Below are positions 43,060-58,843 of a stretch of 64,000 nucleotides of DNA, one piece after another. A program made the translations under genes and the position numbers. This DNA is from Bacillota bacterium (GTDB taxonomy: Bacteria; Bacillota; SHA-98; UBA4971), in the NCBI GenBank assembly GCA_024653485.1, contig JANLFY010000011.1, positions 1 through 64,000 on the forward strand, written 5' to 3'. Below the pieces are notes generated by a model. It made no database searches, was not told where the DNA came from, and was given only the letters and a program-made list of their open reading frames with translations. Each line of letters opens with the position of its first letter. The first letter of the stretch is position 1.

Positions 43060-43430
43060 CTGTCCCCTCACGCCTTCCGATGCGGCCGTCCCGTTCGGTC
43101 TCGGCCTATCCAGTCTCCTCCCATCCGTGCTCGGCCCGTCGGGTCTCGGACTATCCGGTCCCGGCCTATCCGGTCTCGGCCCGTCGGCTCTGTCTCCCGT
43201 CGCGCCGTTCCCTCCCGCCGCCCCGTCAGCCTGCTCGGCTCGTCCGTCAGCTCCTCTCGTCTTTCAGCTCGGCTCGTCGGTGAGCACGGTTCGTCCGTTG
43301 GCCTAGCTCAGCTCGTCCGTCAGCCCGACCCGTCCGTGAGCCCGGTTCGTCCGTCGGACCAGCACGTCCGTCAACCCAGCTCATCCCTCAGCCCTCAGCC
43401 AACTCGTCCGCAAGCTCGGCTCGTCCCGGC
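43060..43430. repeat. Non-coding degenerate tandem repeats
   Basis: Pyrimidine-rich units related to GTCTCGGCCTATCCG and then CGTCCGTCAGCC repeat irregularly through about 370 bp between the SIMPL gene and the ABC exporter. No conserved spacer pattern (so not CRISPR) and no credible ORF. Confidence 0.6.
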
Positions 43431-55082: not shown

Positions 55083-57365
55083 CTAGCGCACCTTCGAGCC
55101 CAGCGGCAGCTCGCGATCGGTGGTGACCACTGCCAACCGCGACGCGTCTGGCGTGGACCCCGCTAGAAGCATCCCCTGGGAGACGATTCCACGCAGCTTG
55201 GCGGGCTTCAGGTTGGCCACGACTATTATCTGCTTGCCGACGAGCTCCGCGGGTGCGTAGTGCTTCGCGATGCCGGCCACGATCTGGCGCTTCTCAGCCC
55301 CGAGGTCGATTTCGAGTTTGAGGAGCTTGTCCGTGCCCTCGACTCGTTCTGCGGCAAGAACCCTTGCCACCCTGAGGTCCAGCCTAGCGAATTCTTCTAT
55401 GGATACGAGATCGTCTGCCGGCGTCCCGGACTCATTTGGCTTCGGCTGCGGCGTCTCAGTCCTCTGGACTTGCTGGATCACTTCTGAGCCCTCCTTTGAG
55501 CCCTCCCTCTGCTTGCCGCCCCATCCTAGTTTCGCGCATCTCGCATCGTCTTTAACATTGTCATCATGGCCGCGCGCCTCTATCTGGCCACGCGGTTCTG
55601 CCTTCGCGGTCTCGGTTTCGGTCGTATTCATCCCTTTCGCTCCGACCGCTTTCGCCGTCTCCTTCGTAGCCTCTCCCGCCGCCTCTCTCGCCACCTCTCT
55701 CGCCGCCCCTTCGGCCGCCCCTTCAGCGGACGCTTCGGCCGCACTCGCCCTCTTCTTGTCTTGCGCCAGCTCCGCCAGACGGAACTCGCCTCGAGCCAAA
55801 TCCGAGGCTTCCACGTCGAGCCTCGGGAATAGGGGCCCCAGGCGCCTCACCTTCGCCCCTTGCACAAGGCGCGCCACGTCAAGCGTCCCCGCGGTCCACC
55901 TTACGTTGCTCAGAGGTGCCCCGCTCTCCTCCAACCCGAGCGACGTCCAGATACGCTCCGCCGCCTCCGGGATGAAGGGGCTCGCCATGACTGCCACCCT
56001 AGCGAGGGCGTCCGCGAGGCCGAACATCACGGTGGCCAGCCGCTCCCGTCGCCCCTCGCGCGCGAGCGCCCATGGCGCGGCCTCGTCGATGTACTTGTTG
56101 GCTCCGTCCACCAGGCTCCATATCTCGCCCAGCGCTCCCGTAAGGTCGAATGCCTGCATGAGCTCGTGGGCGCGTCGGGTCACTCGCTCCGCCAAGTCCG
56201 CGAGCTCCCGGTCGCGGGCCTCGTATTCTCGCGGGGCCGGCACGCGGCCTTCGAAGTACTTCTCCATCATCGCGCACGTCCGGTTGAGTAGGTTGCCCAG
56301 GTCGTTGGCCAGATCCGCGTTGTAGGTCTCGGCAAGACCTTCGTAAGAGAAATCGCCGTCCTGACCGAACGGGACGGCCTTCATGAGGTAATAGCGAAGG
56401 GGATCGGCGCCCAGGCTTTCCGCCAGCTTGACCGGGTCCACTACGATCCCTTCGGACTTGGACATGCGCGCGCCCTTGACGGTCACAAACCCGTGGCCGA
56501 ACACGGTCTTCGGGAGCGGGACGCCAGCCGCCATCAGTGTCGCAGGCCATATCACGCAGTGGAACCATGTGATGTCCTTTCCGATGAGATGCAGATCGGC
56601 CGGCCACCACTTCCCGAAGTTCTCCGTCCCGGGCACGTAGCCCGCCCCAGTGAGGTAGTTGATGAGCGCGTCGAACCACACGTAAACGACCTGGTTCGGG
56701 TCGATCTCCTCCGGGAATGGAACCCCCCAGGCGAGTGTGGACCGGGACACGCTCACGTCCTGCAGTCCCTCGCGGATCCTGTTCACGACCTCGTTGCGCC
56801 TCGTCTCGGGCAGGATGAACTCTGGATGGGCCTCGATATGACGGAGGAGCGGCTCTTGGAACCTTGAGAGCGCGAAGAAGTAGTTCTTCTCCTCCACCCA
56901 TTCAGGCTCGCGACTGGGATGGAGAGGGCACCGCCCGTCGACGAGGTCTTTCTCCTCGACGAACCTCTCGCAGGACACGCAGTAATGCCCGGAGTAGGTC
57001 CCTTGGTAGATGTAGCCGCGCTCGTTGGCCCGTCGCACGATGTCGCGAACCGTGGCTATGTGGTCCTCATCGGTGGTCCTTATGAATCGGTCGGGACGGA
57101 TATCCAGCTTGTCCCAAGCTCTGCGGAAGAGCCCTGCCATCCTATCGCAGAACGCCTTGGGCGACATGCCTTGCTTTTCGGCTTGGCGAGCGACGTTGAG
57201 GCTGTGCTCGTCGGTGCCTGTCAGGAAGAACGTGTCGTACCCTGCCAGTCTCCTGAAACGCGAGATCACGTCAGCCGCGATCTTTTCGTAGGCGTGGCCG
57301 AGGTGCGGCTCGCCGTTTACGTAGTCTATGGCTGTGGTCAGATAGAACTTTTCCACGTGGAACAC
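55083..57365 (-). CDS. metG: Methionyl-tRNA synthetase with C-terminal tRNA-binding domain
   Basis: A 760-aa class I synthetase, about 100 residues longer than usual. Signature YVNGEPHLGHAYEK (HIGH variant), the zinc knuckle CVSCERFVEEKDLVDGRCPL, and GARMSKSEGIV (KMSKS). The C-terminal OB-fold EMAP/Trbp-like tRNA-binding domain starts near residue 650 (EFARLDLRVARVLAAERVEG). The extra length is an Ala/Glu/Lys-rich linker (AEASAEGAAEGAAREVAREA and on, about residues 540-640). The GTG at 57365 is only 2 nt from AGGAGG; the GTG nine bases later (57356) may be the true start. Expression is controlled by an upstream methionine T-box. Confidence 0.95.
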   Translation of the reverse strand: MFHVEKFYLTTAIDYVNGEPHLGHAYEKIAADVISRFRRLAGYDTFFLTGTDEHSLNVARQAEKQGMSPKAFCDRMAGLFRRAWDKLDIRPDRFIRTTDEDHIATVRDIVRRANERGYIYQGTYSGHYCVSCERFVEEKDLVDGRCPLHPSREPEWVEEKNYFFALSRFQEPLLRHIEAHPEFILPETRRNEVVNRIREGLQDVSVSRSTLAWGVPFPEEIDPNQVVYVWFDALINYLTGAGYVPGTENFGKWWPADLHLIGKDITWFHCVIWPATLMAAGVPLPKTVFGHGFVTVKGARMSKSEGIVVDPVKLAESLGADPLRYYLMKAVPFGQDGDFSYEGLAETYNADLANDLGNLLNRTCAMMEKYFEGRVPAPREYEARDRELADLAERVTRRAHELMQAFDLTGALGEIWSLVDGANKYIDEAAPWALAREGRRERLATVMFGLADALARVAVMASPFIPEAAERIWTSLGLEESGAPLSNVRWTAGTLDVARLVQGAKVRRLGPLFPRLDVEASDLARGEFRLAELAQDKKRASAAEASAEGAAEGAAREVAREAAGEATKETAKAVGAKGMNTTETETAKAEPRGQIEARGHDDNVKDDARCAKLGWGGKQREGSKEGSEVIQQVQRTETPQPKPNESGTPADDLVSIEEFARLDLRVARVLAAERVEGTDKLLKLEIDLGAEKRQIVAGIAKHYAPAELVGKQIIVVANLKPAKLRGIVSQGMLLAGSTPDASRLAVVTTDRELPLGSKVR

Positions 57366-57378
57366 AACCTCCTACACT

Positions 57379-57431
57379 AAAATGCCTCTCACCCCGTCCG
57401 GAAGGCGCCTGCCTTCACGTGGGGCGAGAGG
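57379..57431 (-). terminator. T-box-controlled terminator of metG
   Basis: On the minus strand CCTCTCGCCCC pairs with GGGGTGAGAGG (11 bp including one G-U pair), followed by CATTTTAG. It lies directly after the T-box motif, so it competes with the antiterminator. Its end is 14 nt before the metG start. Confidence 0.8.
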
Positions 57432-57512
57432 ACGTTTTCTCGCGGTACCACCCAGCTTCGCCGGTGCCTTGCGGCTCCGGCCTCACGAGGCACTACGGCG
57501 GGAAGCTCGCCA

Positions 57513-57620
57513 CTCAGTCGGCCCTCGCAGCTCAGTCGACCTTCGTCGCCCAGTCTGCCATCGTCGCTCAGTCGACCTTCGTTGCTCAGTCGACCCTCGC
57601 CGATCAGTCAGCCCTCCGAG
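57513..57620. repeat. Six 18-bp tandem repeats inside the metG T-box leader
   Basis: Consecutive units close to CTCAGTCGACCTTCGTCG start at 57513, 57531, 57549, 57567, 57585 and 57603, all in exact 18-bp register. They lie between stem I and the antiterminator and are transcribed in the leader. Confidence 0.9.
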
Positions 57621-57977
57621 CGACCCTTTGCCTTTGAGCGACCCTTTGAGGCGAGCCGCCGAGGTGAGACGAACAGGTGAGACGTCGACGCGGCCCACCT
57701 CTGCAAGCCGCATGCCCCGGCGCTGTAACGGGCGCCTCTCACGCTTGCCCGGCTGACGGACTACTCGCGAAGACGCGTCTGGGCCCGGAGACCCGACAGG
57801 ACCTCCCTTTCATCCCGCGGCTCAGGGGCCATGTTCGGCAGACTTCCCGCGCCGGCTTTCACCTTCGAGCCCGGCTCTCTCTGGCGGGTCGCCTGTGTAC
57901 TCGTCCCCTTCATCGCTTTCGACATGTTCTCTCATGAGGTTGCGCGAAGCCCGCTACGTCATGGGACGTCTGCCCTC

Positions 57978-58007
57978 AATATATCCTCAGGTTTCGCCAC
58001 GTGTCAA
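57978..58007 (-). promoter_or_regulatory. Sigma-A promoter of the metG T-box transcript
   Basis: On the minus strand TTGACA (58007-58002), an 18-nt spacer and TATATT (57983-57978). Transcription would start near 57971, a short distance before T-box stem I. It is back-to-back with the abrB promoter, the two -35 boxes about 150 bp apart. Confidence 0.82.
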
Positions 58008-58483: not shown

Positions 58484-58843
58484 GAGGGTCTGATCTGAAA
58501 TAGGCGGTTCGGTTCGAAGAATTCGCTGATGCGCATCTCACGTTTCTCCCGAGCATCAGGTTCCGTGGGGGTGGCCTTCTTCACGTGCGGCCGCCCCCAC
58601 ATCCGTTCCGTGTCCGTTCCATATGCGTTCCATGTCCGTACCATCCGTCCGTTCCATCCCATCCGCGAGTGCGGCCCATCTCGCCTGCTTCGCCTGTCCC
58701 GCGTGCTTTGCCAGGCCCGCCCGGCTCGCGTCGCGCAGTGTCGCGTCGTGGCGCGTCGTGGCTCGCGGTGGCGCGTCGTGGCGCGCGGTGTCGCCCCGTG
58801 TCGTCCGCCTCCGCCTTGGTTAAAGGACGTGCCTGGGTTGGGT
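58484..58843. other. Intergenic with short repeats
   Basis: 360 bp between the convergent abrB and rsmI genes. It is made largely of imperfect repeats (TTCCATGTCCG type near 58600-58660 and GGCGCGTCGTGGC type near 58730-58800). No gene or clear terminator seen. Confidence 0.5.

What the first reader, a model, noticed from the sequence alone, without database searches (positions are those of the whole stretch)
57379..57971. Methionine T-box with six 18-bp repeats inserted between stem I and antiterminator
All key T-box parts are in place (specifier ATG, TGGTACCGCG, terminator), but the spacer is about 380 nt, of which 108 bp are an exact-register 18-bp array. Repeat number changes could tune the leader or be neutral. 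T-boxes with a tandem array inside are unusual as far as I know.
Basis: partly seen in the sequence, partly recalled or inferred. Interest (0 to 1): 0.7.

Follow-up and report, generated by a model that had tools for sequence, protein, structure and literature searches.

The report
Methionine T-box with repeat-filled linker
An ordinary tRNA-sensing RNA switch (T-box) in front of the methionyl-tRNA synthetase gene has, in one species of its genus only, a run of six degenerate 18-base repeats in the flexible linker between its two working halves, most likely a tolerated by-product of a repeat-prone stretch of chromosome.

Summary
On the minus strand, upstream of metG (55083-57365), lies a transcriptional T-box with specifier AUG, F-box CCGUUA, antiterminator UGGUACC and a terminator. 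Six 18-bp units (57515-57622) lie between its two halves. The units share one register, but no two are identical (mean 74% identity).

All five other species of the genus examined have the same metG T-box without the array. Specifier to UGGUACC is 383 nt here and 184-286 nt in them. A covariance model built from the sisters puts stem IIA/B 5' of the array and stem III plus antiterminator 3' of it, so the repeats are not a normal stem. They fill the inter-domain linker and probably enlarge the tip of a linker hairpin shared by the orthologues (weak covariation; seen only in local folds).

Weaker tandem duplications occur in a few other T-box linkers of the class. The metG neighbourhood is rich in tandem arrays: 27 in this 64-kb window against 30 in 400 kb elsewhere in the genome.

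Best reading: a functional Met T-box with a slippage-born, near-neutral linker expansion. Tuning by repeat number is not excluded and was not tested; no strain data were available.

The parts
57978..58007 (-). Promoter of the leader: TTGACA (58007-58002), 18-nt spacer, TATATT (57983-57978)
   Evidence: Consensus scan, 11 of 12 matches; a similar promoter stands before the T-box in all six species
57821..57919 (-). Stem I with AGAGA and GGUGAAA motifs and specifier loop GAAC-AUG-G (AUG at 57832-57830)
   Evidence: RF00230 alignment; invariant motifs in six orthologues; coordinates
57757..57820 (-). Stem II with S-turn-like motifs (AUGAAAG / GCGAGUAGU)
   Evidence: Alignment of six orthologues; naming from established T-box anatomy
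57719..57752 (-). Stem IIA/B with F-box CCGUUA (57731-57726)
   Evidence: Conserved in all six orthologues; matched by the sister-built model
57707..57718 (-). 5' strand of the predicted linker helix, GGGGCAUGCGGC
   Evidence: Local folds in all species; weak covariation only; not formed in whole-leader folds, controls included
57503..57706 (-). Linker tip enlarged in this species (about 200 nt here, about 30 nt or less in sisters), including the array
   Evidence: Alignment of orthologues; no other copy found in this genome or 12 relatives
57515..57622 (-). Six degenerate 18-bp tandem units; decayed units possibly to 57658
   Evidence: TRF; register and periodicity; unit identities
57487..57502 (-). 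3' strand of the predicted linker helix, CCCGCCGUAGUGCCUC
   Evidence: Local folds
57461..57486 (-). Purine string GUGAGG and stem III (CCGGAGCCGCAAGGCACCGG)
   Evidence: Sister-built model; RF00230 second match; RRRxG-stem III-AA motif from PMC7583486
57420..57454 (-). Antiterminator with bulge UGGUACC (UGGU complementary to the ACCA end of tRNA-Met)
   Evidence: RF00230 match; tRNA-Met(CAU) of the same genome ends in ACCA
57377..57431 (-). Intrinsic terminator (stem, then AUUUUAG); its 5' strand is the 3' strand of the antiterminator
   Evidence: Folded alone at -34.1 kcal/mol; conserved in six species
55083..57365 (-). metG, methionine--tRNA ligase, the regulated gene
   Evidence: NCBIfam NF008900 803 bits over a cut-off of 598; Pfam PF09334

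Best explanation
It is a transcriptional methionine T-box riboswitch controlling metG. Stems I, II and IIA/B read the anticodon of tRNA-Met(CAU). The discriminator (stem III plus antiterminator, bulge UGGU) reads the free ACCA end and, when an uncharged tRNA is bound, blocks the overlapping terminator. The 18-bp array is a species-specific tandem expansion in the inter-domain linker, probably at the apex of a linker hairpin shared by the orthologues. Its origin is most likely replication slippage in an array-prone region. It is tolerated because the linker has no fixed length and, if the hairpin forms, its base keeps the two tRNA-binding domains side by side. Shown here: T-box anatomy, position of the array, its absence from orthologues, regional richness in arrays. 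Inferred: the regulation itself, the linker hairpin in the whole RNA, slippage, near-neutrality.
For: Rfam matches on both sides of the array; all conserved elements intact and shared with five orthologues that lack the array; sister-built covariance model places the array between IIA/B and stem III; UGGU fits tRNA-Met ACCA; linker helix in local folds with probability 0.95, no dependence on array sequence; regional excess of unrelated arrays, 27 in 64 kb against 30 in 400 kb, in sisters too; weaker duplications in other T-box linkers.
Against: Regulation was not tested. The linker helix has little covariation support (one double change, reached by 131 of 500 shuffles) and does not appear in whole-leader folds, even in array-free controls. 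The unit could not be traced to native linker sequence, so slippage from a local seed is not demonstrated. One genome per species: no repeat counts in strains.
Confidence: 0.75

Rival explanations
1. The array is a tunable spacer or timer: its length adds transcription time between the anticodon-reading domain and the terminator decision, so that copy-number change shifts the metG response.
For: About 200 nt of extra linker would add about 4 s at the 40-50 nt/s quoted in PMC6197855; a tandem array can in principle change in length quickly.
Against: With the 0.5 per s binding rate in PMC6197855 my estimate of bound fraction moves only from about 0.9 to 0.99; the units are diverged (no identical pair), which does not suggest current turnover; shuffled arrays serve the linker fold equally well; orthologues do without it.
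Confidence: 0.1
2. The array is a specific functional part, such as a binding site for a protein or an extra contact with the tRNA.
For: Insertions of unknown function occur in every T-box domain, and extra tRNA contacts have been suggested (PMC7583486); the array folds somewhat better than shuffles (z about -2.1).
Against: Present in one of six species; the whole insert is not unusually stable (z -1.1); no related sequence elsewhere in the genome.
Confidence: 0.06
3. The array damaged the switch, and the leader is decaying in this species.
For: The linker is 2.5 to 3 times longer than in orthologues (F-box to UGGUACC 281 against 98-113 nt).
Against: Every conserved element outside the linker is intact; long linkers occur in other T-boxes of the genus, such as L004 and L006.
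Confidence: 0.06
4. The array is coding sequence or an assembly error.
For: The period is divisible by three and an antisense ORF at 57382-57756 spans it; the genome is a draft in 41 contigs.
Against: Variable columns of the unit (1, 2, 4, 5, 9, 12, 13) show no codon-phase bias; orthologues lack the region; diverged copies can be assembled uniquely (inference).
Confidence: 0.03

Closest known systems
Transcriptional T-box leader (Rfam RF00230) with full stem I, stem II, IIA/B, stem III and antiterminator
   Same: Same order of elements, specifier loop, F-box, UGGN bulge, overlapping terminator, upstream of an aminoacyl-tRNA synthetase gene
   Different: Long linker with a tandem array between IIA/B and stem III; scores below Rfam's gathering score in two pieces
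metG T-boxes of the five sister species G001-G005
   Same: Orthologous leader: same promoter, specifier AUG, F-box, discriminator and terminator
   Different: No array; F-box to UGGUACC 98-113 nt against 281 nt
Other T-boxes of the class with weak duplications in the linker (L146, L151/L086, L152; by eye L006, L143)
   Same: Tandem duplication in the interval between IIA/B and the antiterminator
   Different: Unrelated units, fewer copies, TRF scores of 52 or less against 134 here

Membership tests
T-box riboswitch (RF00230) | Match to the family covariance model | tested here: inconclusive
   Two significant pieces, 48.5 bits (E 2e-9) and 25.5 bits, both below the 93-bit gathering score; 10 of the 11 T-boxes of this genome, this one included, score below it
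T-box riboswitch (RF00230) | Stem I with specifier codon matching the regulated gene | tested here: met
   GAAC-AUG-G upstream of metG, invariant in six species
T-box riboswitch (RF00230) | Antiterminator with UGGN bulge complementary to the NCCA end of the cognate tRNA | tested here: met
   UGGUACC in RF00230 alignment; tRNA-Met(CAU) of the genome ends in ACCA
T-box riboswitch (RF00230) | Terminator mutually exclusive with the antiterminator | tested here: met
   Terminator stem at 57431-57377 uses the antiterminator 3' strand CUCUCGCCCC; termination itself not assayed
T-box riboswitch (RF00230) | Stem IIA/B with F-box | tested here: met
   CCGUUA in all six species, sister-built model match; the pseudoknot itself was not tested
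T-box riboswitch (RF00230) | tRNA-dependent antitermination | not testable with these tools
   Needs transcription assays

The most novel reading that the evidence does not exclude
A T-box whose response is set by the copy number of a tandem array in its inter-domain linker: a length tuner of the contingency-locus type built into a riboswitch of an essential gene.
Probability: 0.08. Interest if true: 0.75.

Novelty: new variant of a known kind. Interest (0 to 1): 0.3.

Why it matters
It marks the linker between IIA/B and the discriminator as a place where a T-box can gain about 200 nt of repeat without losing any conserved element, and six orthologous leaders with short and long linkers form a natural set for testing how much linker length matters. 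If repeat number did tune the switch, it would be a fast way of adjusting an essential gene; the present evidence favours a near-neutral reading.

Tried and rejected
Array as stem II or III: rejected. Unit derived from the native linker: local alignment no better than shuffles (p 0.92-1.0). Unit as a copy of the stem I strand (GTCGA..AGCGA): p 0.86, chance. Dispersed repeat or mobile element: no match beyond chance outside the site. Coding: rejected. Whole-leader thermodynamic test of insulation: uninformative, since array-free controls do not form the linker helix either. F-box to T-box distances of 330-412 nt in several other loci were partly false, the F-box pattern having hit upstream DNA. 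Literature searches for T-boxes or riboswitches with tandem repeats gave nothing on point, in an open-access library only; PMC443535 on methionine regulation is not held.

Full report
What is there. The minus strand from 58007 to 57366 is the leader of metG (methionyl-tRNA synthetase). It has a good promoter (TTGACA-18-TATATT) and stem I with specifier GAAC-AUG-G. Then follow stem II, stem IIA/B with F-box CCGUUA, a long linker, stem III, an antiterminator with bulge UGGUACC, and a terminator of -34 kcal/mol that shares its 5' strand with the antiterminator. Rfam's T-box model finds it only in two sub-threshold pieces, 48.5 and 25.5 bits. Ten of the 11 T-boxes of this genome, this one included, score below the gathering score, so the low score reflects the lineage and the long linker and is not evidence against the assignment. 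A tRNA-Met(CAU) of the same genome ends in ACCA, matching UGGU.

The array. Six 18-bp units fill 57622-57515 in one register; TRF scores are 110 for period 18 and 134 for period 36. The period-18 self-match of 0.67 exceeds every one of 2000 dinucleotide shuffles (maximum 0.48). No two units are identical and mean pairwise identity is 74%. Decayed units may extend to about 57658.

Orthologues. Five other species of the genus were compared. The metG contigs of four of them appear as uncultured Bacillota/Firmicutes metagenome assemblies, and one more distant relative is named Limnochordales. All five have the metG T-box with the same promoter type, specifier, F-box, discriminator and terminator, and none has the array. 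Specifier to UGGUACC is 383 nt here and 184-286 nt in the others; F-box to UGGUACC is 281 against 98-113 nt. One of them (G002) instead carries extra sequence in stem II and in the IIA/B region, and others have extra sequence 5' of stem I. Length change at non-core sites is therefore common in this leader. In the sister genus the metG upstream regions show no T-box motifs. T-boxes stand directly before metG in at least five other families of the phylum, so a metG T-box is ordinary.

Where the array sits. A covariance model made from four sister sequences (IIA/B to antiterminator) hits the window twice. One hit starts at 57754 and aligns well through IIA/B and the 5' linker strand. The other ends at 57420 and aligns well through stem III and the antiterminator. 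The rest of each hit is forced onto the insert. In local folds of the linker a helix GGGGCAUGCGGC / GCCG(C)CGUGCCUC is predicted in the sisters and, with a small bulge, in the window. The array lies in its enlarged tip. The helix forms with probability 0.95 with the array, and shuffled arrays do as well (median 0.96), so nothing in the array's sequence is needed for it. Limits: the helix hardly varies (one double change, reached by 131 of 500 shuffles), and whole-leader folding does not form it even in controls.

Where it may come from. The insert has no other copy in this genome or in 12 relatives. The unit is not recognisably derived from the native linker or from stem I. The region as a whole is rich in unrelated tandem arrays: 27 in this 64-kb window against 30 in 400 kb of other contigs of the same genome (binomial p about 1e-9). 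They concentrate after 32 kb, in coding and in non-coding DNA. The metG contigs of four sister species are locally rich too, up to 0.35-0.8 per kb in some 20-kb stretches against 0.05-0.25 in control stretches, though other stretches of those contigs are not. An array inside the metG leader is therefore not surprising. Slippage is the inferred cause.

How unusual. Sixty-eight T-box loci of relatives (a few fetched twice) and 11 of this genome were scanned. A few have weak duplications in the linker: 12 bp x 3.4 in L146, 21 bp x 1.9 in L151/L086, 14 bp x 2.1 in L152, and degenerate ones by eye in L006 and L143. None approaches the score here. Twenty-nine top-scoring T-boxes from across the phylum show none, but that set is biased to compact leaders. 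[quoted passage not shown]

Function. Control of metG by uncharged tRNA-Met follows from the anatomy and from established T-box knowledge; it was not tested. For the array I favour near-neutrality. A timer role is possible: about 200 nt adds some 4 s at 40-50 nt/s. With the 0.5 per s binding rate quoted in PMC6197855, however, my estimate of the bound fraction rises only from about 0.9 to 0.99, and the diverged copies do not suggest current copy-number turnover.

Noticed in passing
window 32000-62000; also L156, L158 (G001:C13), L160-L161 (G004:C34), L164 (G002:C27), L167 (G005:C23): The metG neighbourhood of this genus is rich in unrelated tandem arrays in coding and non-coding DNA: 27 in the window against 30 in 400 kb of other contigs. 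Cause unknown.
   Followed up: partly
window 55653-55742: A 12/24-bp array inside metG itself, in the alanine- and glutamate-rich stretch before the C-terminal tRNA-binding domain.
   Followed up: no
window 58602-58800 and 43090-43394: Further intergenic arrays (11 bp and 10/20 bp; 15/45 bp and 17/56 bp, the last scoring 149) with other units.
   Followed up: no
L047 (G002 metG leader): The G002 orthologue has about 60 extra nt in stem II and about 25 extra nt in the IIA/B region, a different site of expansion in the same T-box.
   Followed up: partly
L048-L053 (G006-G010 metG upstream regions): The sister genus has a promoter but no T-box motifs before metG: loss in one lineage or gain in the other.
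   Followed up: no
L154 (G014:C117:14700-15750): What looks like a partly tandem T-box: one stem I region followed by two GGGUGGCACC antiterminator/terminator units.
   Followed up: no
L006 (G000:C6) and L143 (G004:C109): Two other T-boxes with very long linkers (366 and 408 nt from F-box to UGGUACC) holding degenerate 12-nt and 9-nt repeats by eye.
   Followed up: partly
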